64,000 bases of DNA from a virus. Numbering within the stretch: the stretch's first letter is position 1; the number at the start of each line of letters is the position of its first letter. Under the pieces are notes generated by a model, which saw only the letters and a list, made by a program, of their open reading frames with translations, had not been told where the DNA came from and searched no databases. Of the stretch, positions 6,535 to 63,861 are shown one piece after another. Location of the stretch: positions 62,001 through 126,000 of IMG/VR virus record IMGVR_UViG_3300022839_000007. One strand, written 5' to 3'. Both the position numbers and the translations under genes were made by a program.

Positions 6535-6578
6535 GGGTTTTGTGGTCATAAGTACTATGTAATTAATTGGAGACTAGG

Positions 6579-7727
6579 TTGTCACTTATCAAATGTTTAC
6601 ACATTACAAAAGGTATGCGTATCTCTTTTAGAGAAATTTGCAATCAAGTATATTTTTTTAGAAAACCATGCTGTGAAATGCACACGTCGGATATGCCAGC
6701 TGATATATCTAAATTTGTCCCCTATGTGGATGTTACTAGTATTTTTTCTCACCCTACGATAAAATACTTTAATAGCTGGGTAAATACAGAAGAAATAATG
6801 CATCCTAGTTGCCAACCCTGCAAAATTAAAGAATCATTAGGTATACACAGTGCAAGGATGCAATCAAATCTACATACAGATGCACCGTATGACATATTAC
6901 TATTAGATGTTGTAATTGGAAATGCTTGTAATCTTGCTTGTCCATTTTGTGATAGTACTTCTAGTTCATTGATAAACAAAATTTCAAAAAAACAAAATAT
7001 TGCCGAGCTTCCTACAAATTGGAAGACAGCAACGCACAAGCTTGCTTCGTCTAACAGTATTTCTAAAATAATATCCGAGTTGTTAACAACATATAAAGTT
7101 AAACAGCTTAAATTAATAGGCGGCGAACCATTTTTAAAAGAAAATTGGGAATCAATTGGCAATATTTTAGATCAAGATTATTGTAAAGATCTTGAAATAT
7201 CAATTACCTCTAACGGAACGGTATTGAACAAAAGAATTCTACAGAGTCTAAAAAATACAAAAACTACCGAATTAAGAATTAGCGTAGACAGTATAGGAAG
7301 CAACTACGAATTTATTAGATGGCCGCATTCGTGGAAAAAGATGGAAGACAACTTAAATTTTTTAAAAAACAACACAGCTAATAATATTCAAATATCAGTA
7401 GCAAATTTAATTTCTGTTTTAAATTTTGAATTTCTTCCAGAGATCGAAGAATATTTTTCAAATTTGCCATTTTTTTGTGGATACAATTTTGACATTAAGC
7501 CAAAAACATCATTATTACATTATTCCAATATTCCAAATAATATAAAAATACAAGTTAGAGATCGAATTAAAAACAAAGATTTAAAAAAAATGATCGAACT
7601 CTATGAAACGGATGTAGACTCGGTACTAATTCAAAAACAATTTGAATTTTTTTTAAAACATAGAAAATTATCCACGGCTGCAAATGCAGTCGGTCCTATG
7701 ACTGCTAAATGGTTATCATTAACATGA
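6579..7727 (+). CDS. Radical SAM protein with N-terminal Cys (twitch-like) region
   Basis: About 382 residues. The start is taken as TTG 6579 because GGAG lies six bases upstream; a TTG 12 bases earlier overlaps that site. N-terminal Cys (KPCCEM, HPSCQPC) may hold an auxiliary cluster. The core motif is CNLACPFC and the SAM-binding stretch is LKLIGGEPFL. The layout matches the 3112 protein, with which it shares general architecture but not close sequence. Its stop overlaps the next start by ATGA. Confidence 0.78.
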   Translation: MSLIKCLHITKGMRISFREICNQVYFFRKPCCEMHTSDMPADISKFVPYVDVTSIFSHPTIKYFNSWVNTEEIMHPSCQPCKIKESLGIHSARMQSNLHTDAPYDILLLDVVIGNACNLACPFCDSTSSSLINKISKKQNIAELPTNWKTATHKLASSNSISKIISELLTTYKVKQLKLIGGEPFLKENWESIGNILDQDYCKDLEISITSNGTVLNKRILQSLKNTKTTELRISVDSIGSNYEFIRWPHSWKKMEDNLNFLKNNTANNIQISVANLISVLNFEFLPEIEEYFSNLPFFCGYNFDIKPKTSLLHYSNIPNNIKIQVRDRIKNKDLKKMIELYETDVDSVLIQKQFEFFLKHRKLSTAANAVGPMTAKWLSLT

Positions 7728-13917: not shown

Positions 13918-14723
13918 TAACGGTATACGAAGATGGAACTCGATGCGTTACATACTGTGATTCAACTTACTACGATCTAGCAGAGTTTTCTAGTAATAAA
14001 AACATTATACTACTTAGCGGCGGCATAGATTCGCAATCGTTGATATCTTACTTTACAATAAATAATATTTCGTTTATTGCATATTTCTTTGATTATGGAA
14101 TTAATAAGTACGATAAGGATTATGCAATTAAATTTAAAACCAATGTACTTAAATTTAATTTAGATGATTTATATTTTAACAAAGAAATACATAAATATTA
14201 TTCTAAATTTTGCGAATGCACTAGTCCTCAACTAGCTGTACATATTTACGGCATAGACTGCTTATTTAAAAAATATCCAGATTATAACATTATAATGCCA
14301 GGAATGCCTTTATTTTTTAATTTAAACGATGATAATAGTATAGCAAATTCGTTACCCGACTTTACTCAATTATCGTATCTGCGATACAAAGAAAAAACAA
14401 ATAGTAAATTATATCCATATTTTTGGGCAGAAAGTAAGCAAGGCCAAGAAATGCTTAACTCGGCAACACAGTTAAATTTTTCTATCACCGACTATCAAAA
14501 AAAAATATTATTATATCGAGAATTAAATCTTGACATTTCTCCTCAAGAAATCAAAAAAACTGGATTTGAGGAATACAAAGACTACTTAAAAAAAGAAAAA
14601 TTAATAGACTATAATAAAGAGTTTAGACGACCGATATCAAAAGAAAAAAAATGCATTGGAGTATTTGAAGATTCGCTAATGTCGGCCAAATTAAAAAACT
14701 ATATTAATGACTGGAAAGCTTAA
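13914..14723 (+). CDS. PP-loop ATP pyrophosphatase-like protein
   Basis: 269 residues. NIILLSGGIDSQSLISYF is a PP-loop near residue 30, as in asparagine synthetase B-type and related ligases that activate a carboxylate or carbonyl with ATP. No glutaminase domain is present. The segment KKTGFEEYKDYLKK and an internal YGIDCLFKK block recur in the minus-strand protein at 15361, so the two are paralogues. It is coupled to oxygenase genes on both sides, suggesting a shared substrate. Confidence 0.7.
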   Translation: MITVYEDGTRCVTYCDSTYYDLAEFSSNKNIILLSGGIDSQSLISYFTINNISFIAYFFDYGINKYDKDYAIKFKTNVLKFNLDDLYFNKEIHKYYSKFCECTSPQLAVHIYGIDCLFKKYPDYNIIMPGMPLFFNLNDDNSIANSLPDFTQLSYLRYKEKTNSKLYPYFWAESKQGQEMLNSATQLNFSITDYQKKILLYRELNLDISPQEIKKTGFEEYKDYLKKEKLIDYNKEFRRPISKEKKCIGVFEDSLMSAKLKNYINDWKA

Positions 14724-15388
14724 TGATAGAAAATATTGCATCAGTTCCACTACTAGTAAAAAGTCAATTTAAGTCTATTGTACTCGAGAATATGATAGAC
14801 TCTCTCGAGTATGCTCAAGGGTGTATAATAGACGATACCGGCAAACTATTTAAGTGGAATCGAGCCGAATATTGTTTGTATTATAACAATATTGATAATA
14901 CTATTCCTGCCAATTGGAGCACAAATATAGAACAGGTTAAATTGCATACTGCATTTGTAACTAGTGAAGTTACCCGTTTGCGTAAATATATAGTTAACAA
15001 CCTGCCTATTGATGTGTCGTATATTTCAATTCAAAAATCAAAAGGAAATCTATATCCGCATTTTGATATCACTGACCAGTCAACAGTAACTACATTACCA
15101 ACAGATTTGTCTTTAATAAAAATAATGCTAGATGCAAATACTTCAATTGATAAATTATATTTTACAAATGGCATAAGTAACTTTTATTTTACAAAAAATC
15201 ATTTGCCACTCGATACAAATATATTTGCATGGAGTTCTAAACGATATAAACACGGAGTAACTGATCTGACTCTAGATGCTAATCGAATACTTATTAACAT
15301 ATATGGTACATTTAATCATAATAACTATTATAACCTAATACAGGAGAGTATTAAACAATATCAACATGTAGCATTAAGAGTAGTATGA
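14723..15388 (+). CDS. Third 2OG-Fe(II) oxygenase-like protein
   Basis: 221 residues. LYPHFDITDQ gives an HxD and YKHGVTDLTLDANRILINIYG a distal His and Arg in the expected order and spacing. Other AspH features are weak, so confidence is lower than for its two neighbours. It ends the plus-strand operon and its last 28 bases overlap the end of the convergent gene at 15361. No terminator hairpin is seen there. Confidence 0.58.
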   Translation: MIENIASVPLLVKSQFKSIVLENMIDSLEYAQGCIIDDTGKLFKWNRAEYCLYYNNIDNTIPANWSTNIEQVKLHTAFVTSEVTRLRKYIVNNLPIDVSYISIQKSKGNLYPHFDITDQSTVTTLPTDLSLIKIMLDANTSIDKLYFTNGISNFYFTKNHLPLDTNIFAWSSKRYKHGVTDLTLDANRILINIYGTFNHNNYYNLIQESIKQYQHVALRVV

Positions 15389-16317
15389 TACTCATCTAGA
15401 AACTCTATTATAATTTTAGTTTCGTAACCTATTTTAAAATCTTCAATTATTTTTGAAAAATTCCATATATTATATGTTTTTCTTAATTCTTCTAGCCCGG
15501 TTAATTTTAGCCTTCTAAGGGGTATATTACAATATCCGAGTTCTTGGTAAAGAGTTTTCTTGTCGGCATATAAAAAACAATTATAATTTAAAAGTGCAGA
15601 ATGTACTAGGTCCGACTGTAAATTGTTAGCTAATAAAAACGAGGATGTTATCGAAATCTTTTGAACTTTACTCCACCGATCTAACGCACATATATTATCC
15701 GATGGATACGAAAATTTAAGTTCATTATTAACTATTGCAGGCTCAGGAATATCGCCGGAAATAACTAAATGACAGTCGTTGCTAAGTTTAAGACAGTCTA
15801 ACGAATACAGAAACAACATAACTTCAGGAAATGACGTGCGGTACCTAAGCCCGTACCAAAGGTGATGATTACTATTAAAAAAGTTAGTAGCATCGATTTT
15901 TATGTAATTTATTTTAAAATTAGCCGGTAACGTTCTCTGTAAATCTAAGTAATCCTCTTTATTACAAGTATAGTCAAAAAAGACCAACTGAACAATTGAT
16001 GCAACTGGGAGGAATGATCTAATAAGCATTTCGCTATCAATTCCTCCGGATACTAATAATATGATAGTTTTTTTAGTTTCTGTAAGATTGCGGGCATAAT
16101 TGTATGCATGATGTAAAAATGACGAATGCTGATCAGAAAACGAAGTACTAACGTTCCAAGCAAAAGCTGTATTAAATTTAAAATCTACCAACCCGATCTC
16201 ATCTATATATCCGTATGATAGTGGGTTATTGTTAATATTAAAGTTTTCGTTAAATCCATAATACATGTTATTATAGCAAATTGATCCCGTTCTAGGAGTT
16301 TTACTTACAGAAAACAT
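15361..16317 (-). CDS. PP-loop ATP pyrophosphatase-like protein, convergent paralogue
   Basis: 318 residues. IILLVSGGIDSEMLIRSF is the PP-loop near residue 93, followed by a VFFDYTCNKEDY segment like FFDYGINKYDKDY in the 13914 protein. LTGLEELRKTYNIWNF near the C-terminus matches KTGFEEYKDYL there. An N-terminal extension of about 65 residues distinguishes it. It is encoded on the opposite strand but abuts the pathway, so it is likely a related ligase. Its start shares one base with the upstream gene's stop. Confidence 0.7.
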   Translation of the reverse strand: MFSVSKTPRTGSICYNNMYYGFNENFNINNNPLSYGYIDEIGLVDFKFNTAFAWNVSTSFSDQHSSFLHHAYNYARNLTETKKTIILLVSGGIDSEMLIRSFLPVASIVQLVFFDYTCNKEDYLDLQRTLPANFKINYIKIDATNFFNSNHHLWYGLRYRTSFPEVMLFLYSLDCLKLSNDCHLVISGDIPEPAIVNNELKFSYPSDNICALDRWSKVQKISITSSFLLANNLQSDLVHSALLNYNCFLYADKKTLYQELGYCNIPLRRLKLTGLEELRKTYNIWNFSKIIEDFKIGYETKIIIEFLDEYHTTLNATC

Positions 16318-17126
16318 TAAAACTTTTTTGATAATATGGAGAATTCATAGTTATTTTTTTTAATTGGATTAATAGTAAATGTCTGGGTTTCGGATCCAGC
16401 TGTAATACAAATATCCACTATCTTGTTAGTGTGTCCTAATAAAAATCCATCTCGAAAAGTAATTCCCTGAGGTAAATTTTCTGCAACTGCATTAGGGGCT
16501 GATGTAATTAAGAATCCAAACAATTCGTTACTCTTTACTTCAAATTCGTGTAGATTATTAAAGTTCCATATTGGCATAGTTATCTCCTTCTGTATATTTA
16601 TCTTACTAGCATAGCCGAATGCATAAAAGTCGCCCAATATAAAGCTGTTATCCTTTAACAATTGACTAATTATTTTAATTGGAGACACTAGGCGGTACCA
16701 TTGCATGTCGACATCGCAATATTTAAAATAACATTTTCCAGTTAAATCCATAGAAGATATTGGAGTAACGTTAGGATGTATTCCTGGAAAATTACAATGA
16801 TCGGAAATATTATTAAACGAGCAGTACAGTTGATCTTTAGAAAAATTGTACATAAGTTGGTCTATTCTAGTTGACACCGCACTACTTCCAAACGGCATAA
16901 ACACTGGATTTTTGATGTCCGACTTTAATATGTTTAACAAAATAGAATGCACCGAATCTTCAGTAAAGTTAGTAGGAATTACATGTACGTTAATATCAAA
17001 TTTTGTAAAGGAGAGTGCAGTGAAATATAGATGCGAATTGTGAATAACGGATTGCGTTTCAAAACTTACATTAGAATTATTAATTCTAATAGGATAATAC
17101 CCATCAATTAGTATTGGAGAAAGCAA
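16317..17126 (-). CDS. Hypothetical protein between GNAT and PP-loop genes
   Basis: 269 residues, not recognised. It contains alternating hydrophobic strands, several Cys (CSFNNISDHCNF, CYFKYCDVDMQW) and no obvious nucleotide motif. It overlaps the upstream GNAT gene by 23 bases and abuts the PP-loop gene, indicating one transcript from the tail-fibre promoter. It could be a substrate or acceptor of the neighbouring enzymes; this is only positional inference. Confidence 0.65.
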   Translation of the reverse strand: MLSPILIDGYYPIRINNSNVSFETQSVIHNSHLYFTALSFTKFDINVHVIPTNFTEDSVHSILLNILKSDIKNPVFMPFGSSAVSTRIDQLMYNFSKDQLYCSFNNISDHCNFPGIHPNVTPISSMDLTGKCYFKYCDVDMQWYRLVSPIKIISQLLKDNSFILGDFYAFGYASKINIQKEITMPIWNFNNLHEFEVKSNELFGFLITSAPNAVAENLPQGITFRDGFLLGHTNKIVDICITAGSETQTFTINPIKKNNYEFSILSKKF

Positions 17127-31101: not shown

Positions 31102-32847
31102 TCATTGTCGACTATTTTTTTGGTATATAAATGTAAGATTTCCTGAATCCCATATCCTATACAGTCCGTTGTTGTTCATATTTTGGGATTCGGTCAACTT
31201 TGCATCAAAAAATTGTAGTTGTTGCTGCAATTTATGTTTTTGGTATTGAATTCTATTTTGCATCCTACCATTGACTATGTACCAATAGTTTGGAGAAGTG
31301 GTGTGCAGAAATTTTAAATTGGTTTTGTGATATACTCCTCCGACTGAATACCTGCGATTAGCATAGGTTACGAAAGAGTCGTGCGGCTGGTGCTTGAATA
31401 TTTTGCTTGCACCTCCGGTTATTTGCATTCCTTTTTTGCTGCATAATCGTAACAGTTCAGTATTTACATTTTTAGAAAATCTTGATTTGCCGTAAGTTGC
31501 CAACAATACCAACTTATCTTGATAAAACAGTCCGTATTGATCCGATGATCCAATAGTACCACTTAGGTGATTTTGATCTAGAAACACTGTTGCTGTACTT
31601 TTTTGTACTGACCTAAATGTCGTATTTCGAGCACCGATTACTTCTTGATAAATTCCTAATCTAGACAGTATCATGCTTTTCCAAATAGAGTTTTTAATCA
31701 AGTCGTTCCATTCAGTGTCCCAAACATGCAGTAACTGAATGCCTTTTTCTTCGCATAGAACTGTTTTGTTCAAGTGGTAGTTTTTATTCTTTCCATGCTG
31801 CTCAGTGTGCCAATATACTCCATTAAATTCAATAGCCAAGTTATGATGTGGCATATAAAGATCTAGTTCTACGCCATTGAGTACACATCGATCACGATGT
31901 ATTGTTTCGATGCCGTTGTCCTCTAAAAACTGTTTGATCTCTAGTTCGCCTACTGACGTTCCGATCTTAACTTCTTTAAACGGCAGCTGATAGCGATCAG
32001 TGATATTAGTTATCACAGCCAACGAAACATTAGTCTCTTTGGCTAATGCTGTTCTCAACGCCGGGGTTTCTTTATTCTTGATATGATCAATTACATATTG
32101 ATATTGAGCTTGGTAATTTTTGTCTTTGCTGTTCTGTATTTTTTCAATCACACTTGCTAGTTGAGTCGAATGTTCAACTCCGTACTTGCTAAGTGTGCGT
32201 TGTCTTTTCTTTTGTTTGACCGATTGCGTTTTTTGTGGATGGCATCCGTATTTTTCGTCAAATGTCTTATGACGTGCGCTCTTCAGTTCTTCTGACTTTG
32301 ATTTTAACGTACTACTAATTTTTTGCTTTGTTTCTTCGAGGTGGACTGCATTGTCCACTCCGTATTTGTATAAGCAAGTTTCTTTAGCAAGACTTCTATT
32401 ATTATATACAGCATCGCCGTATTTTTTTAATTTAGTCTCGGCTCTTTTGGTCTTGCTAGTGTTGTCATTCCTTGAACACTGTATACTACAATGCTCTGAA
32501 AAAGTCTTGGTTGAGGAGTTAAAATACCTCACAGGATTGCCACAAATTTTACAACAAGGTACTACTATGTTATTTATTATGCAATGTATTGCAACTGACG
32601 TTTTTAAATTTGGAAATTCGATTGCAATACTATCTTTTATTTCTTGCGAAAGTATCTTTGTGATATTAGGATTGAGCTTTTTATTGTTAGTAAAAAGATT
32701 AGGGATACGAGTTAACGCATCCCTAATTTGCTTAATACTTGTTTTTTGATACGTGGTCTCTATATCGAGCGTCGTTTCGGTTCCATTGTTCGCCGGTGCC
32801 TTGCATGATGTCGATGCATCTATCAATGGTTTTACTGGTCCAGTCAC
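31102..32847 (-). CDS. Free-standing Vsr-like (EDxHD-type) homing endonuclease
   Basis: 581 residues. A zinc-finger-like CCKICGN...HCSIQC region near 95-125 is followed by repeated KYGV(D/E) motifs, as in DNA-recognition repeats of phage endonucleases. A core near 300-370 has SVGELEIKQFL, ELDLYMP and AIEFNGVYWHTE, matching the Vsr-like fold of EDxHD homing endonucleases. GTG 32847 with AGGAG six bases upstream is a good start and lies inside the glycosyltransferase gene, so 116 bases are read in two frames. It is probably mobile. Confidence 0.75.
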   Translation of the reverse strand: MTGPVKPLIDASTSCKAPANNGTETTLDIETTYQKTSIKQIRDALTRIPNLFTNNKKLNPNITKILSQEIKDSIAIEFPNLKTSVAIHCIINNIVVPCCKICGNPVRYFNSSTKTFSEHCSIQCSRNDNTSKTKRAETKLKKYGDAVYNNRSLAKETCLYKYGVDNAVHLEETKQKISSTLKSKSEELKSARHKTFDEKYGCHPQKTQSVKQKKRQRTLSKYGVEHSTQLASVIEKIQNSKDKNYQAQYQYVIDHIKNKETPALRTALAKETNVSLAVITNITDRYQLPFKEVKIGTSVGELEIKQFLEDNGIETIHRDRCVLNGVELDLYMPHHNLAIEFNGVYWHTEQHGKNKNYHLNKTVLCEEKGIQLLHVWDTEWNDLIKNSIWKSMILSRLGIYQEVIGARNTTFRSVQKSTATVFLDQNHLSGTIGSSDQYGLFYQDKLVLLATYGKSRFSKNVNTELLRLCSKKGMQITGGASKIFKHQPHDSFVTYANRRYSVGGVYHKTNLKFLHTTSPNYWYIVNGRMQNRIQYQKHKLQQQLQFFDAKLTESQNMNNNGLYRIWDSGNLTFIYQKNSRQ

Positions 32848-35174: not shown

Positions 35175-36725
35175 TTAATCAAACAATTCGTTAAATTTAG
35201 TACTAGCATTTACAGTTTTTTTGCCAATATTAAGACGAGTACCAATTACCTGCATCCAAAATCGATCATATTTTTCAACTACTTCCAACGCGGATTCTCT
35301 TGTTGTCTTAGAAAAGATTTCGTCTATTGCGTCTCTAAATTTCAGTCCTGACATTCCCCATTTATCATCAATAAGCATATAAGGGAATTTGCCTGCATCG
35401 TATTCTCTATTAGCGCGTTGTGTACTTTCTACATGCATCCAAACATTGTGTCCCATTTGCAATGCATAGCTGAAACTATCCCAGCTGGTTGAATCCTTAG
35501 TTCGTATGATCTGGTCTCCGTACTTGTCTAGCAATGGAATTCCGGTCTTGTCTAATTCAGGATCTCCTTTGTTAACTTTGATACTACCTACTTTATTAGT
35601 GTCCCCCGGTGCATAGATACAGACGTCGTTCATTTTAAGTATATTGCTAATTGGTGAATTTTCAAAAGATTTAAGTATATTGTCTTGCACAACTGCATCG
35701 CTAAACTTTCGAATATCGGAAGAGTACTTTAATGCATCGGCGCCCGGAGCCATCATATAACTCCATTTTCCGCGATCCTCGATACGAATACTGTGATAAA
35801 TTTGTCCATTTGCAGTAGCAAGGAATGGACTTGCACAATCATATGTAATCATAAAGTTTTTATTATGATATTTACGGATAGCACGTTGAATATCAGTAAG
35901 CAGAATTGCCCACTCTAATTTACTAGTACCAAGAAAATGCATTACATCGTGCAATCCTTCTTCTAATAGCCCGTCGTATATCATATGAACTAACCTACGA
36001 AGAATCAAATGAACATCGCACATATTCTGCCCACCCATTGCCCATCCATTAAAGTAAGTGCCGGGGTATTTTGTAGGATCGCAATAGTCTTTAAATTCAT
36101 TATACCAGCCATCGGCATCGGCATGGTTACTACCTTGCAATACATTGAGTACTTTAAAATTACCACGACGATTTGCCATGTAATATCTTGCATTAATATG
36201 CGTAGCATCAACTGCATCTTGATAACTGTGAATTCCGGCAGCAGCGGCAGCCTTTGGATCCTGAAAGGTCCATGTTGGAATATCCAACATCATTCCGTAA
36301 TCCATATATTCTTCCATCCAGTCTACAACTAATTTGCGTTTTTTAGCAGCAAGCGGACAATTGGGGTCCGCCCACTTTCCTGGCCATAATCCTTTAGCTA
36401 TCTGGAATCCTCCAGAGTCACCTAACAGCCACGAACTGTCTCTATCTCGGTTACGCACCATATCTTCTTTTTCGCTAAATTTGTTAATATCAAGTTCGGC
36501 ATGACCTGCAGAATACAGTGCCCATTTATATTGAAACGCACCTTTCGAGGGATTTAAAAAATTTAATCCCTCAACTCCGCCTAGCCCTATAGGGATTCTT
36601 GCAGTATCTACATATTCTCCGTATCTCTGCTTACCTATAAAAGTTCCGTAAAATCCACTAATGCTCGGTAAGAAGTAAGCATAATCATTTTGTGTCGATG
36701 TTAAATCGGTATTAATTTTTGTCAT
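35175..36725 (-). CDS. dpdA: DpdA/TGT-like deazaguanine transglycosylase
   Basis: 516 residues. LLGDSGGFQIAKG near 101-113 carries the DSGGFQ base-binding Asp of tRNA-guanine transglycosylases. MMLDIPTW, NVLQG and FNGWAMGGQ follow in TGT order, and MITYDCASPFLAT has the nucleophile-type Asp. DpdA proteins are TGT relatives that exchange guanine in DNA for a 7-deazaguanine. With FolE, QueE and a QueD-like gene nearby, DNA modification is the best reading. The Cys zinc site of classical TGT is not apparent. AGGAAG precedes the ATG. Confidence 0.78.
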   Translation of the reverse strand: MTKINTDLTSTQNDYAYFLPSISGFYGTFIGKQRYGEYVDTARIPIGLGGVEGLNFLNPSKGAFQYKWALYSAGHAELDINKFSEKEDMVRNRDRDSSWLLGDSGGFQIAKGLWPGKWADPNCPLAAKKRKLVVDWMEEYMDYGMMLDIPTWTFQDPKAAAAAGIHSYQDAVDATHINARYYMANRRGNFKVLNVLQGSNHADADGWYNEFKDYCDPTKYPGTYFNGWAMGGQNMCDVHLILRRLVHMIYDGLLEEGLHDVMHFLGTSKLEWAILLTDIQRAIRKYHNKNFMITYDCASPFLATANGQIYHSIRIEDRGKWSYMMAPGADALKYSSDIRKFSDAVVQDNILKSFENSPISNILKMNDVCIYAPGDTNKVGSIKVNKGDPELDKTGIPLLDKYGDQIIRTKDSTSWDSFSYALQMGHNVWMHVESTQRANREYDAGKFPYMLIDDKWGMSGLKFRDAIDEIFSKTTRESALEVVEKYDRFWMQVIGTRLNIGKKTVNASTKFNELFD

Positions 36726-39805: not shown

Positions 39806-40882
39806 TTACCAACTAAACAAATTGCTAAATGTATTATGACGTTTAGTACTTTCTAAGTCGTAGTTTAGCACACCAATTAAGTTGTCTAATTTATTATCAA
39901 TAATTACTTCTTCCATTGCACTGTCGTCAAATGGCAATTCCTTAAACCATGCCGGCATACGCATTTCGTCAGTAGGATATGCAACGCTAGTAAATCCCAA
40001 CGGATTAGCTTTAACTTTACAAACGATTACTTTCATTCCGTCGACAATTTCTTGAGAATAACGATCGCCGTTCATTCTTTTAAGTGTGTTCCAGTTAATG
40101 CTTGCTCTAACATGTCCTGGCATGTTTGCCTTGCCTTGTTTTTCTTCCAGTCGCTGATAGTGCAAAATATTGTTTGCACGTTTAGGAGATCCCTTTTCGT
40201 ATCCAGGCCGATCTTTAAATTCTTTACGAAATTCAGTGATTGCATCTAGAATATCACTCTCGTTGGCTTTTTGTAAAACCATCATCAATAAAGTGCTAAG
40301 GAAAGTTTGCATAAACAAAGGAGTGTCCGATCTCTTGAGATCTAACCCCATAGCTTTAACTTTACCGGGTTTTCCGTCGACGTCTTTTCTATGTCCTTCA
40401 ACATCAATAACCAGTGCAGCATATCGTTTTTTAGTAATGAACAACCCGGTTTCTGCAACAATTTCTCGTCCAGCTGCAATAACGTCGGACCTAGACTTAG
40501 GGCAATGAAATGCTTGTGCCATAAATTTTTCAAACGTTGTATTTGCTTGATCAGCAACTTGATCATATAGTTTAATGGCGTTTTCTTTATTCCACGGAAC
40601 TTTTCCTGCTGCTACATCGTCTTTTATCATCGGCCATGCACTGAAATATACCGAGTTATGTATTAGGATGTTGTTAGCAAAGAACCAGGGCTGGTCGCTA
40701 TTTTTCATTCCTATATCATATACATATTCGTCGTTGGCTTTTCGAACTTTAGTAACTCTTTTAACTTTGCTTCGAGATAGACTTAGTTTTTTAGATCCAA
40801 CCTCATTGAGAAATTCCTTTACTGCAAAAGCAACTTCCTCTTTAGTTGTTGCTGATAATATCTTGATTAAGTTATCTTTCAT
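39806..40882 (-). CDS. 43: DNA polymerase part C: intein C-half plus thumb domain
   Basis: 358 residues. Residues 1-76 are the C-half of an intein: VYDIGMKNSDQPWFFANN fits block F and ILIHN followed by Ser fits block G and the +1 residue. Residues 77-358 continue gp43 after motif C (SVYFSAWPMIKDD, TKKRYAALVIDVEG) to a C-terminal FSNLFSW, like the clamp-binding peptide of RB69 gp43. After trans-splicing it would join PolB. The ATG has no strong ribosome site; a 3-codon mini-frame (ATG GTA GAA TGA) abuts it. Confidence 0.9.
   Translation of the reverse strand: MKDNLIKILSATTKEEVAFAVKEFLNEVGSKKLSLSRSKVKRVTKVRKANDEYVYDIGMKNSDQPWFFANNILIHNSVYFSAWPMIKDDVAAGKVPWNKENAIKLYDQVADQANTTFEKFMAQAFHCPKSRSDVIAAGREIVAETGLFITKKRYAALVIDVEGHRKDVDGKPGKVKAMGLDLKRSDTPLFMQTFLSTLLMMVLQKANESDILDAITEFRKEFKDRPGYEKGSPKRANNILHYQRLEEKQGKANMPGHVRASINWNTLKRMNGDRYSQEIVDGMKVIVCKVKANPLGFTSVAYPTDEMRMPAWFKELPFDDSAMEEVIIDNKLDNLIGVLNYDLESTKRHNTFSNLFSW
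40655..40882 (-). other. Split intein C-half (Int-C)
   Basis: 76 residues at the start of PolC. The last residues HN followed by Ser are the hallmarks of the C-terminal splice junction. The minimal Int-C core begins about residue 38; the first 37 residues are a charged extension (MKDNLIKILSATTKEEVAFA then KEFLNEVG) of unknown role, perhaps for association with Int-N. Confidence 0.85.
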
Positions 40883-40916
40883 TCATTCTACCATTTTAAT
40901 ATCTGTTGTTCTACTA

Positions 40917-40946
40917 GGTTAGTATTTGCTGTGTAGTGGACTAACC
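40917..40946 (-). other. Hairpin in the gap between intein halves
   Basis: In the 109-base gap, GGTTAGT and ACTAACC form a 7-bp stem with a 16-base loop. No ORF of the size of an endonuclease is present in the gap. It may affect translation of PolC. Confidence 0.35.
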
Positions 40947-40991
40947 CGCTTTTTTGCCGTTACGTTTGATTGTTTAATAATAAAATTTAAA

Positions 40992-41521
40992 TCATACCTG
41001 ATAAATGTTAAGTGTTATTATAATGTCGTCTTCATTAATTTCCAGAGGCTTAACTTCTATTAATTCGCCATTGCGTTCGATCATTACTGAATGATCTTCG
41101 GTTACGATAACTATATTGCCTTCTGAATCCTCGATTTCGTATAAGTCTTTGGAGACTTTGTGGCGATACACATAATTAATATGTCCCATATATGGTTCGT
41201 CTCTTTCTTTATCGTATGACATTACCATTACATCGTCGTCGTGTGCGTATTCCTTATCTCCGTTGTTGGTTTTAATTTCCAGTCTATTGAATAAGCTTTC
41301 GATAGTCATATTTCCTATTGAGGTCTCGATTAGTGAATTTGCTTCACAAGAATCTGTATCTCCGTAGATTACAGCTTTTCCTACATGATCGTATTCGCCT
41401 GTAATAATTTTATTAACTTCGGCACTCATATGCTTAACAATCTGCCTACCACTAAGAGTAGTACTCTGTCCAATTCTTTTATCAAAGAATCTGCATCCTG
41501 GGTTTAAGATAGCACCATACA
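40992..41521 (-). CDS. 43: DNA polymerase part B, exon 2: motif B to motif C plus intein N-half
   Basis: With exon 1 it makes a 239-residue protein (190 + 530 bases = 240 codons). It begins TG TAT GGT, which after splicing to the final T of exon 1 restores Leu-Tyr-Gly of motif B (KKINLNS|LYGA). KAVIYGDTDS is motif C with the catalytic Asp pair. The next 118 residues, from CEANSLIETSIG to NIYQV, are an intein N-half ended by a natural stop. The polymerase active site is thus completed only after splicing. Confidence 0.9.
40995..41348 (-). other. Split intein N-half (Int-N)
   Basis: 118 residues starting with Cys1 right after YGDTDS. CEANSLIETSIG fits block A and VIVTEDHSVMIER fits block B with the TxxH motif. 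It ends NEDDIIITLNIYQV at a stop codon. Insertion after the DTDS of motif C is the site known as pol-c in archaeal family-B polymerases. Confidence 0.87.
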
Positions 41522-41773
41522 CATTGATGTTCAGTTAGAATCGTTAATTCCAACCCGCCTTGCGGCTGCTGCATGTTACCATGCAGATCAGACTATATCA
41601 CCATCTGTGTTAACACAGATGTTCCCCGTTTCCACTCACTTGAGTGTACGTCTTTCGACTAGTCGTTGAACCTTCCTAACGCATTAGGCTTGGCTGCTGA
41701 TTGTCCTTATTGGAGTTTCCAGCAATTAGAGGAATTATTCGACCATTGTTGCCAATGGAAGTCGCAGTACTTT
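41522..41773 (-). ncRNA. Group I intron in DNA polymerase gene (subgroup IA2-like)
   Basis: 252 nt without ORF. Core elements in order on the minus strand: AATTGCTGGAAACTCC (P), AATCAGCAGCCAAGCC (Q), GTTCAACGACTAGTCG (R) and GATATAGTCTG (S); GACTA/TAGTC can form P7. P1 can form from 5'-exon UCGU with internal guide GCGA, giving the U-G pair at the splice site, and the intron ends in G. P2 (CCATTG-GCAA-CAATGG) and P9 (CTGCATG-GTAA-CATGCAG) are hairpins with GNRA loops. Removal joins exons in frame at NS|LYG. Confidence 0.92.
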
Positions 41774-41963
41774 ACGAGTTTAGGTTAATCTTCTTGACTA
41801 GTTGGCGTTTATCCCAAAACGTTATTTGATCTAGTATGTAGTCCTTGTCATTAGAAACGACCTTGTTATCCTTGATTTTTAAATTATGATTATCAAGGTA
41901 CAGCGCAATCTTTTTTGGATCAGCGTCGCTAATTAGTTGTTTAAGTTTTTTAATATCTATCAT
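41774..41963 (-). CDS. 43: DNA polymerase part B, exon 1
   Basis: 63 codons plus one base. AGGAG precedes ATG 41963. The segment runs MIDIKKLKQLISDADPKK to FWDKRQLVKKINLNS, the conserved run into motif B of gp43 (KxxxNSLYG). Unspliced, it would hit TAA directly at the intron edge. The start separates it from PolA by 59 bases, so PolB is its own polypeptide. The N-terminal 40 residues correspond to the fingers region and may serve as the interface with PolA. Confidence 0.88.
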
Positions 41964-42022
41964 TGGTATTCTCCTTTAAATATCTAAAAAGATACGGTTC
42001 ATTTTTTCTCTCCGGAGATAGT

Positions 42023-43861
42023 TCATTTATCATTTATTGTATACTTTTTAATATCTTCAGCTAACGTAGGATCAATATTAATGCCAGAATTAAGTTCTGT
42101 CCATAGCTCTAGCATACCCTGAAGCTCTTTACGCTCGCTGTACCATCTCTTAAGAAGTCCGGGAATTACTGCTTCAAATTCGTGTGTGAATATAGTTCCG
42201 TTCGCACTAAGCATCCACGGAGTATTACTATCAAAAATCATATTATAAATTTCAGCAGCACTAAGCACGTCTTGACGCCCGTCTTCCCAATTGACGTGTA
42301 ATGCAATGTCTTTACGTTGTTCCATTACAGCTTCGTATTCTTCAGTAGCAAATCTTCCTTCCCAACTTGCAGCAAAACTCATTTTCTTAAGAGTTATATC
42401 GTCGTGTACTCGTGCTTCGCTAATATGTGGAACAATTTGTCCTATGATACTTTCTGGTGCCATATTCATGCTACGAATCACACTAGGATACAATGAGTTA
42501 AGATCCATACTACCTATCCATTCGTGTAATCCCTTTTTAGGAACCGCGACATATGCACCAGCAGCTTGTGTACTATCGCCGTTATTTTTTCTATTAGGAA
42601 CTTGCATACCTCTTCGATGTGCTTCGTTGATAATTGCTTGTTCAGTTAGTGCTACTGCACCTGCAGTAGTTTGTAGTAATACTGTATTTTCGTGAGCAAG
42701 GACGTTTGCTAAATCAATAAATTTTAGTTTTTTATCTAATTTATCTAGTAACGCAACGTCTTGTCTATTATATTCAATAAATTTTTCAAAATCATTATTG
42801 TATAACTGATCCAATGTACCTTCGTATATTGTTTTGTTCTCGCCTACTTCCATCTCTCCAATTGCATCAAGTCGATAGCTATGACGTTCCTCGTAAGTGT
42901 ATTTGCGATATAAGTTAAGATAATCAAGATGTACTCTTCCGATAGTATCGTAGGTTATGCTAGTTTTTCCGTATTTTTCAAACTCGCGTTTTTTAGGCAA
43001 TTGCCCCCATAAACAGAAGCGTCTAGTATCGTCATTGCTCAATACACGTTTGATACGATTAACAGTATAAGGAACGTCGTACCCTTCGGAATTCCATCCA
43101 CTATGTACATCGGCATCTTCAATTAAGTCTAGAAACATCTGTAACATAGCACGTTCGCCATTACCTTCTGAATCGTTAGGAAACAATATACATTCTTCGC
43201 CCCATCGTTCCTTACATATTGCTTGTGCTTTTTCAAACGGTAATCCTTTAGGAGGCATAGCAACTGTAACTAATAAATCTAACCATTGCAAGTATACAGT
43301 AATAGCAGTAATTGGCATAAATGGATCGTCAGTTGGTGCAAAGCCTCTGCCGGCTTTTAAGTAATCACACCCTGAAATTTGCTTCCACTTTTTTTCTTTG
43401 TGGTTCCATACTTCGTATAGATGCGCATCGGTAATACGCGAAAGTGCATCGACATTTGTATCAATATCTATAACTGTTGACTTTTTTCTAATTTTTACCT
43501 TGTAATCCCTAGGGTACTCAAACGGATCAAAGTCAGTTTCGATATCCCAAAATGCTACATTAAGTTTAGGAGCATCCTGATTAAGATAGTGTTCGCTTAG
43601 GCATTGAAATATTGGATTTACATCAGACTCAAATAATACGTTGCCTTTGTTAATAGCAACTTCTTTTCTATAATCTTTTGTATTTTTACACACAATACGG
43701 CTTAGAGTGTCTCCAAAAATACTCTTGTACTTTCCTCTAGCGTCTTTGTAATAAAATGTATATTTTGCTTGGTATTCTTGATAAATTCGTTTACCTTCCT
43801 TGCGTTCGACTATGTTAATAGTATCGCTGTCCCGGTTAAAGAAGCTGTCAATGTAGGGCAT
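42023..43861 (-). CDS. 43: DNA polymerase part A: N-terminal, exonuclease and motif A
   Basis: 612 residues from ATG 43861 (AAGGAGAG upstream; the TTG 18 bases earlier overlaps that site). VAFWDIETDFDPF near 105 is Exo I, VHSGWNSEGYDVPYTVNR Exo II and YNRQDVALLDKLD Exo III. DLNSLYPSVIRSMN near 450 is palm motif A. It stops at KKYTINDK before motif B. So it has proofreading and half the palm but no complete active site. Split gp43A/gp43B polymerases are known in Aeromonas T4-like phages. Confidence 0.92.
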   Translation of the reverse strand: MPYIDSFFNRDSDTINIVERKEGKRIYQEYQAKYTFYYKDARGKYKSIFGDTLSRIVCKNTKDYRKEVAINKGNVLFESDVNPIFQCLSEHYLNQDAPKLNVAFWDIETDFDPFEYPRDYKVKIRKKSTVIDIDTNVDALSRITDAHLYEVWNHKEKKWKQISGCDYLKAGRGFAPTDDPFMPITAITVYLQWLDLLVTVAMPPKGLPFEKAQAICKERWGEECILFPNDSEGNGERAMLQMFLDLIEDADVHSGWNSEGYDVPYTVNRIKRVLSNDDTRRFCLWGQLPKKREFEKYGKTSITYDTIGRVHLDYLNLYRKYTYEERHSYRLDAIGEMEVGENKTIYEGTLDQLYNNDFEKFIEYNRQDVALLDKLDKKLKFIDLANVLAHENTVLLQTTAGAVALTEQAIINEAHRRGMQVPNRKNNGDSTQAAGAYVAVPKKGLHEWIGSMDLNSLYPSVIRSMNMAPESIIGQIVPHISEARVHDDITLKKMSFAASWEGRFATEEYEAVMEQRKDIALHVNWEDGRQDVLSAAEIYNMIFDSNTPWMLSANGTIFTHEFEAVIPGLLKRWYSERKELQGMLELWTELNSGINIDPTLAEDIKKYTINDK

Positions 43862-63300: not shown

Positions 63301-63861
63301 TTAGTCTCTTAGAAACTCTCGCCAGTCAAGATTATACTTTACAGAGTCTATACGATGCACTCCAATCAAATATAGCACATATGAACTAACGCTGCTTCCT
63401 CGACCTACTCCCCAAATAATTTTATTTTCACGCATAAAGTCTACTAAGTACACCATATACCGTAACAAGTCCAACATGTTGCGATCTTTATATGCAGCTA
63501 GTTCTTCGCATACAACTTTCCATTCTCGTGTAGCATGGACTTCATACGGTTCAAACAATGGTAGTTTGGTCATTAATTCTGCCATGATATACGGTCCGAT
63601 ATCTAATATTTTATATTCATCAGGCATAAACCATTCGGATTGTAAAGCATGATCAAACTCTTCTTGCTGGACATCGAGTGCAATATATTTGGTAAGAGAA
63701 GGCATTCCTTGTTCTTGCATTGCAATATTAAACATATCTACTTCGTCACTTGGATCACATAATACCACATGGCATTTATCTGATTGTCCAGAATAAATTA
63801 AATTAATTAAATCACGGTTAGAAAATCTTGGAATTCCTAACGAGTCTGTTTTTATTAGCAT
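63301..63861 (-). CDS. Fragment resembling DNA polymerase III alpha subunit
   Basis: 186 residues. IIWGVGRGSSVSSYVLYLIG then HRIDSVKYNLDWREFLR closely follow the bacterial replicase DnaE block (GxGRGSSxxSxxxYxLxIxxxDPxxYxLxFERFL). The N-terminal half is not like the PHP domain. Catalytic Asp triad regions of DnaE are absent, so it cannot be a full polymerase. It might bind nucleotides or primers. It may derive from a host gene. A sigma70-like promoter precedes it. Confidence 0.62.
   Translation of the reverse strand: MLIKTDSLGIPRFSNRDLINLIYSGQSDKCHVVLCDPSDEVDMFNIAMQEQGMPSLTKYIALDVQQEEFDHALQSEWFMPDEYKILDIGPYIMAELMTKLPLFEPYEVHATREWKVVCEELAAYKDRNMLDLLRYMVYLVDFMRENKIIWGVGRGSSVSSYVLYLIGVHRIDSVKYNLDWREFLRD

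What the first reader, a model, noticed from the sequence alone, without database searches (positions are those of the whole stretch)
39806..43861. Replicative DNA polymerase encoded as three pieces, joined by a split intein
PolA (exonuclease, motif A), PolB (motifs B and C, Int-N) and PolC (Int-C, thumb, clamp-binding tail) are separate reading frames. Int-N starts with Cys right after YGDTDS and has TEDHS; Int-C ends ILIHN before Ser. The fold and catalysis need all pieces, so protein trans-splicing and non-covalent assembly are inferred. Split inteins in phage genes and in the N. equitans polymerase are established precedents; this combination is not one I know.
Basis: partly seen in the sequence, partly recalled or inferred. 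Interest (0 to 1): 0.92.

Follow-up and report, generated by a model that had tools for sequence, protein, structure and literature searches.

The report
Phage DNA polymerase in three pieces
This phage's only family B DNA polymerase gene is broken in three places by decayed mobile elements and is probably rebuilt by RNA splicing, protein trans-splicing and plain subunit assembly; the same architecture is already on record for some Aeromonas phages, so it is a remarkable but not new kind of thing.

Summary
On the minus strand: PolA (exonuclease, motif A; 43861-42023), PolB (own ribosome-binding site; 41963-40992) and PolC (40882-39806). PolB's gene holds a 252-nt group I intron (41773-41522, Rfam E=3e-24) inside motif B, restoring KKINLNS^LYGA. 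PolB ends in Int-N and PolC begins with Int-C of a motif-C intein; the catalytic residue is Ser1 (YGDTD^S), not Cys. Its continuous relative folds as an intein (pLDDT 91; best PDB match is the Aes123 PolB1 split intein, whose trans-splicing has been measured). The fingertip gap and the Int-N/Int-C spacer are relics of two homing endonucleases that are intact in relatives. Against a relative with the same architecture, the fingertip-intron block is 95% identical, the intein 89% and the polymerase around them 70-78%: two separate lateral transfers. Precedent: Aeromonas phages Aes508 and Aes516 carry the same layout (gp43A / intron + N-intein / C-intein), and MIJ3/PA5oct a split intein in PolB. 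So this is a new member of a known kind. Its value: it shows how the fractures arose.

The parts
42023..43861 (-). PolA, 612 aa: exonuclease motifs (DIETD, NSEGYD, YNRQD), motif A (DLNSLYPS), first half of the fingers; stops at the fingertip (..KKYTINDK)
   Evidence: RB69-type polymerase match; GCAAGGAG before the ATG
41964..42033 (-). relic of an HNH-type homing endonuclease gene: its first codons (MINELSPERKNEPYLFRYLK) joined to its last codons by an internal deletion; intact 397-aa copy in L028:7661-8851
   Evidence: 93-95% DNA identity to both ends of the L028 gene; homing endonuclease family phrog_655
41774..41963 (-). PolB exon 1: second half of a long fingertip plus first part of motif B (..FWDKRQLVKKINLNS)
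   Evidence: own Shine-Dalgarno AAAGGAG; 90% identical in L028
41522..41773 (-). group I intron, 252 nt, no ORF; exon ends in U (TCGU), intron ends in G; joins NS^LYGA
   Evidence: Rfam RF00028 at 41783-41569, 95.4 bits, E=3.1e-24; 5 of 252 bases differ from L028; absent from 220 of 224 related loci
41352..41521 (-). PolB exon 2, extein part: rest of motif B to motif C (YGDTD)
40992..41351 (-). Int-N, 119 aa (SCEANSLIET...YQV) and stop
   Evidence: TIGR01445 29.3 bits against a cut-off of 24.5; PF14890 E=3e-8; alignment
40883..40991 (-). relic of the Vsr-like homing endonuclease that lies whole between Int-N and Int-C in L163 and L172; in-frame stop KW*NE and internal deletions
   Evidence: 82-92% DNA identity to L163 and L028; L163 endonuclease 33% identical to the Aes508 VSR endonuclease, E=1e-35
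40655..40882 (-). Int-C, 76 aa: helical leader (about 37 aa) plus conserved blocks YVYDIGM..FFANNILIHN
   Evidence: leader corresponds to the two helices at residues 119-144 of the continuous intein model
39806..40654 (-). PolC extein, 282 aa: end of motif C (SVYF), KKRYA, thumb, C-terminal tail NTFSNLFSW (clamp-binding-like position)
   Evidence: PF00136; RB69 polymerase match E=2e-12
41522..42112 (-). laterally acquired block (fingertip halves + HNH relic + exon 1 + intron), 95.3% identical to L028 within polymerase that is 70-78% identical
   Evidence: absent in L163, otherwise 91-94% like L028 beside it

Best explanation
The only family B DNA polymerase found in this phage record is a fractured gene made by two homing elements that have since lost their endonucleases. 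Element 1 is a homing endonuclease gene that sat in the fingertip between the two finger helices, next to an ORF-less group I intron in motif B; it split the polymerase into PolA and PolB. Element 2 is an intein at motif C (YGDTD^S) that was split when or after a Vsr-like endonuclease gene came to lie between its halves. To make an enzyme the phage (i) self-splices the intron from the PolB mRNA, giving NS-LYGA; (ii) trans-splices PolB-IntN with IntC-PolC through a Ser1/Asn/Ser+1 reaction, giving a 402-aa protein with an intact YGDTDSVYF; (iii) assembles this non-covalently with PolA across the fingertip, as proposed for gp43A/gp43B of phage 44RR. Shown here: the elements, their precise insertion, the relic endonucleases, separate lateral acquisition, and constraint on the intein (dN/dS 0.1-0.2). 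Inferred: splicing, assembly and activity.
For: Group I intron; exact NS^LYGA junction with U/G splice-site rules and a 240-codon spliced frame; intein families; continuous-intein relatives L084, L169-L171; AF2 model of that intein pLDDT 91, best PDB hit 9HTH, the Aes123 PolB1 split intein, E=2.5e-14 (sequence match); all exonuclease and A/B/C motifs kept; no other PF00136 polymerase, no PolA-family polymerase and only a partial PolIII-alpha-like ORF in the 157,788-bp record. Endonuclease relics. Mosaic identity 70 / 95 / 78 / 89 / 71% with Fisher p from 4e-4 to 8e-43, and empty-site relative L163. Intein dN/dS 0.19 and 0.11. Trans-splicing measured for Aes123 PolB1 (PMC11923092).
Against: No activity was shown for any step. 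The Int-C family match alone is weak (E=0.026). PolC has lost the ATGA overlap with the endonuclease stop seen in L028/L163, so its translation start is uncertain. The full-length polymerase model was poor (pLDDT 49), so the fingertip location rests on sequence alignment and knowledge of RB69 polymerase. The record may be incomplete, and a host or second polymerase could replicate the phage.
Confidence: 0.85

Rival explanations
1. Intein and intron work, but the PolA/PolB break is bridged covalently (frameshift, bypass or read-through), not by subunit assembly.
For: The PolA tail and the PolB leader align end to end with the unbroken long fingertip of PA5oct.
Against: Own Shine-Dalgarno and start for PolB; 60 nt with stops between them; in L028 a whole 397-aa endonuclease gene lies there. 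44RR and 25 have the same kind of break, and a split enzyme complex is proposed for 44RR (Petrov et al. 2010, from memory; gene maps).
Confidence: 0.05
2. The polymerase gene is dying: the breaks are loss-of-function mutations and another polymerase copies the genome.
For: Both endonucleases are decayed; a small PolIII-alpha-like ORF (63301-63861) exists.
Against: All catalytic motifs kept; exteins diverge from L028 with saturated synonymous sites but dN only about 0.18; Int-N and Int-C conserved; the PolIII-like ORF covers only about 70 positions of one domain.
Confidence: 0.04
3. Assembly or sequencing errors broke one continuous gene.
For: Most relatives (over 80 full-length frames) have one continuous 887-899-aa frame; several contigs end at the Int-N/Int-C border.
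Against: The insertions are a ribozyme, an intein and endonuclease remnants, seen in independent contigs; the same layout exists in isolate genomes Aes508 and Aes516.
Confidence: 0.01
4. The high identity of the two blocks between this phage and L028 reflects constraint rather than lateral transfer.
For: Ribozyme cores and intein folds are constrained.
Against: Synonymous divergence is low too (PolA tail dS 0.13, exon-1 leader 0.22, Int-N 0.36) while exteins on all sides are saturated; edges fall at the intron 3' end and near the intein ends; sister phage L163 lacks block 1.
Confidence: 0.05

Closest known systems
Split gp43 of Aeromonas phages Aes508 (JN377894) and Aes516 (JN377905)
   Same: Three polypeptides: gp43A / gp43B-1 with group I intron and N-intein / gp43B-2 with C-intein. 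Aes508 keeps a Seg-type and a Vsr-type endonuclease; Aes516 has neither, as here.
   Different: Intron sits 16 nt further downstream there (LYGAF/L^GNN against NS^LYGA); fingertip endonuclease is GIY-YIG there, HNH here; Int-N about 31% identical; different phage lineage (nearest named polymerase is PA5oct, 43%).
gp43A/gp43B of phages 44RR2.8t and 25
   Same: Break at the fingertip; 25 has an endonuclease in the break and an ORF-less group I intron in 43B.
   Different: No intein; other intron site.
Split intein in PolB of Pseudomonas phages MIJ3 and PA5oct
   Same: Same insertion site, Ser1, 54% identical Int-N (PMC6892783).
   Different: No intron, fingertip unbroken; a different endonuclease (Hef-like) between the halves.
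Aes123 PolB1 split intein (PDB 9HTH)
   Same: Ser1/Ser+1 class, motif-NX-like His (NYVYRHK), motif-C site; closest fold.
   Different: Int-N 120 + Int-C 39 aa; here Int-C carries a 37-aa helical leader, and Int-N a non-catalytic Cys2.
Fractured genes with split inteins (Dassa et al. 2009)
   Same: Intein halves separated by a Vsr-like endonuclease gene in relatives (L163, L172).
   Different: Endonuclease reduced to a relic here.

Membership tests
Split intein, class 1, Ser1/Ser+1 (oxyester) subgroup | Nucleophile at residue 1 and Ser/Thr/Cys at +1; terminal His-Asn | tested here: met
   Ser1 invariant in the aligned relatives..IHN^S
Split intein, class 1, Ser1/Ser+1 (oxyester) subgroup | Splicing blocks A, B (TxxH), F, G | tested here: met
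   TIGR01445 over cut-off; TEDHS; YDIGM..FFANNILIHN
Split intein, class 1, Ser1/Ser+1 (oxyester) subgroup | Hint fold | tested here: met
   model of the continuous homologue L084 (70% identical Int-N), pLDDT 91, PDB best hit 9HTH
Split intein, class 1, Ser1/Ser+1 (oxyester) subgroup | Motif NX histidine | tested here: inconclusive
   NYVYRHK aligns with Aes INYIMKH (alignment; motif described in PMC10189870); role not tested
Split intein, class 1, Ser1/Ser+1 (oxyester) subgroup | Trans-splicing activity | not testable with these tools
   needs co-expression
Group I intron | Conserved core (P3-P9) by covariance model | tested here: met
   RF00028 95.4 bits against gathering score 50
Group I intron | Exon ends in U, intron ends in G, P1 with exon | tested here: met
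   ..UCGU^AAAGU..AAUG^UGUAUGG; UCGU(A)/(U)GCGA P1 read from sequence
Group I intron | Self-splicing | not testable with these tools
   needs in vitro transcription
T4-type family B DNA polymerase | Exonuclease motifs I-III and polymerase motifs A, B, C | tested here: met
   PF00136/PF03104; phrog_262
gp43A/gp43B fingertip split | Break between the two finger helices with separate start for the second piece | tested here: met
   location by alignment, not by a solved structure
gp43A/gp43B fingertip split | Functional heterodimer | not testable with these tools
   needs purified subunits
Fractured gene with endonuclease between intein halves | Endonuclease gene between Int-N and Int-C | tested here: met
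   intact in L163/L172, partial in L028, only a relic in the window

The most novel reading that the evidence does not exclude
Element 1 is a composite homing unit, endonuclease + flanking fingertip exons + ORF-less intron, that moves as one block: on arrival it replaces the recipient's short fingertip by its own long, already split fingertip and so turns a one-chain polymerase into a two-chain one in a single step; losing the endonuclease then leaves the untranslated gap seen in 44RR-like genes.
Probability: 0.5. Interest if true: 0.62.

Novelty: new member of a known kind. Interest (0 to 1): 0.47.

Why it matters
It extends the three-polypeptide, intron-plus-intein polymerase from Aeromonas phages to a distant lineage with a different intron site and a different endonuclease class, so the architecture has probably been put together more than once. 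The relatives give the whole series: no element, continuous intein (L084), split intein with endonuclease (L163, L172), all elements with the fingertip endonuclease intact (L028), and both endonucleases lost (this window). That bears on the question left open for phages 25 and 44RR (PMC2988022): did the gap in gene 43 come from an endonuclease insertion? In this lineage the gap is an endonuclease relic by sequence. It also supports the proposal that a free-standing endonuclease carries a neighbouring ORF-less intron, and adds a Ser1 split intein with an unusual Int-C leader to those available for protein ligation.

Tried and rejected
Full-length AF2 model of L084 polymerase with intein: pLDDT 49, not used. 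Genome-contig scan for relatives and a host hint: nothing. Pfam on the endonucleases: only weak matches; PHROGs and the Aes508 comparison served instead. Dassa et al. 2009 not held, so cited through other papers and from memory; Petrov et al. 2010 from memory and through PMC2988022/PMC2993671. I first took the PolA tail and the PolB leader for junk added by the insertion; alignment with PA5oct showed they are two halves of a long native-type fingertip.
Full report
What is there. The window lies in a virus record of 157,788 bases. On the minus strand, three open frames carry a family B polymerase: PolA 43861-42023, a middle frame, and PolC 40882-39806. They are the only PF00136 matches in the record; a PolA-family polymerase is absent, and a PolIII-alpha-like ORF of 186 aa covers only about 70 positions of that domain.

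The missed intron. Rfam finds one RNA in the whole window: a group I intron at 41783-41569, 95.4 bits, E=3.1e-24. Its edges can be fixed by the protein: exon 1 reads ..KKINLNS then stops; exon 2 reads (L)YGAILNPG. With the exon ending in U (41774) and the intron ending in G (41522) the junction is AAC TCG T^TG TAT GGT = NS-LYG, the motif B sequence of the unbroken relatives, and PolB becomes a 239-aa protein from ATG 41963, with AAAGGAG in front. The intron occurs in 4 of 224 comparable related loci, all of one lineage, and an exact-core search of the viral collection found four contigs, one of them (L246) a further contig of the same kind.

The split intein. Int-N passes TIGR01445 (29.3 bits, cut-off 24.5) and matches PF14890; Int-C alone is weak. 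The intein's identity is nonetheless secure, because relatives L084 and L169-L171 carry the same intein as one continuous frame within a 1080-aa polymerase. AF2 gives that intein pLDDT 91, and its closest solved structure is 9HTH, the Aes123 PolB1 split intein (by sequence E=5.5e-12). In the alignment of relatives Ser1 never varies while residue 2 is Cys, Leu or Val, so splicing should run through Ser1 and Ser+1, as in the Aes123 intein, whose trans-splicing has been measured (PMC11923092). Trans-splicing would give YGDTD-SVYF, native motif C. The split lies at the usual endonuclease position; Int-C carries a leader that forms two helices in the model.

Where the breaks came from. In L028 the fingertip break holds a 397-aa homing endonuclease gene (phrog_655) whose start overlaps the end of PolA. 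The window's gap keeps the first codons and the last codons of that gene, 93-95% identical in DNA: an internal deletion. In L163 and L172 a Vsr-like endonuclease lies between Int-N and Int-C, a relative of the VSR endonuclease at the same place in Aes508 (E=1e-35); L028 keeps 69 residues of that frame and the window about 100 nt with an in-frame stop.

Lateral acquisition. Between the window and L028 the DNA identity along the gene is 70.2% (PolA), 95.3% (fingertip halves + relic + exon 1 + intron), 78.2% (exon 2), 89.0% (intein with spacer), 71.4% (C-extein); every neighbouring pair differs at Fisher p of 4e-4 or less. Synonymous divergence follows the same steps: low in the mobile parts, saturated in the exteins. 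The right edge of the first block is the intron's 3' end; the second block coincides roughly with the intein. L163 is a sister of L028 (91% and 94% identity on the two sides) without the first block: it has a short fingertip without the break and no intron, but has the split intein. So two elements arrived separately, and the first brought its own long, split fingertip, which aligns with the unbroken long fingertip of PA5oct.

How it works. Shown: anatomy, precise junctions, conserved motifs, relics, mosaic. Inferred from named precedents: intron self-splicing (phage 25 intron, Petrov et al. 2010, from memory), trans-splicing (Aes123 PolB1, PMC11923092), subunit assembly (44RR gp43A/gp43B, Petrov et al. 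2010, from memory). The final enzyme would be PolA (612 aa) plus a 402-aa PolB/C chain, with exonuclease motifs, motifs A, B, C, KKRYA and a C-terminal tail all present.

Comparison. Aeromonas phage Aes508 is annotated as gp43A / Seg-like endonuclease / gp43B-1 with group I intron and N-intein / VSR endonuclease / gp43B-2 with C-intein, and Aes516 as the same without endonucleases; cmscan confirms their introns. MIJ3 (PMC6892783) and PA5oct have the split intein and an endonuclease. The window therefore belongs to a known kind. Differences that point to separate assembly: intron 16 nt upstream of the Aes508/25 site, HNH instead of GIY-YIG endonuclease, and a distant polymerase (nearest named relative PA5oct, 43%). 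The intein itself belongs to the same family as Aes123 PolB1 and is probably of common descent (inference).

Verdict. Real and functional-looking, with high confidence; not new in kind. Most of the interest is in the natural series of intermediates and in the evidence that the fingertip gap is an endonuclease relic carried in together with an ORF-less intron.

Noticed in passing
L239:3167-5341 (-), i.e. record position about 14166-16340, outside the window: A second intein in the same phage: an apparently cis mini-intein inside a 724-aa portal-like protein (FPQT^CLSLLTKIPLL..YVHN^S).
   Followed up: partly
window 31102-32847 (-): 581-aa homing endonuclease-like ORF (phrog_3339, E=3e-126) elsewhere in the window.
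   Followed up: no
window 63301-63861 (-): 186-aa ORF matching part (26-94 of 260) of the bacterial DNA polymerase III alpha domain PF07733; too short for a polymerase.
   Followed up: partly
window 35175-36725 (-), 6567-7727 (+): ORF with a GDSGGFQI motif as in tRNA-guanine transglycosylases (from memory; no Pfam or PHROG match) and a radical SAM ORF weakly like QueE: possible 7-deazaguanine DNA modification.
   Followed up: no
window about 43381-43510: PolA has about 56 extra residues near the exonuclease domain relative to L028, L163 and L084.
   Followed up: no
L163 near 4325: About 23 nt missing in the polymerase relative to L028, shifting the frame between motif A and the fingers; error or real damage not resolved.
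   Followed up: no
L088, L091, L092, L093, L234: A second intein insertion site two codons upstream in motif C (YGD^TDS, Thr+1), in most of these loci with related Vsr-like endonucleases; the window group uses YGDTD^S.
   Followed up: partly
L027, L029, L246, L165-L168: Several contigs end or start at the Int-N/Int-C border, as if the population varies in how much of the endonuclease remains.
   Followed up: no
record of L028 (G002) 167434-167703: A second group I intron elsewhere in the genome of the relative with all elements; similar matches also in G007, G008, G009.
   Followed up: no
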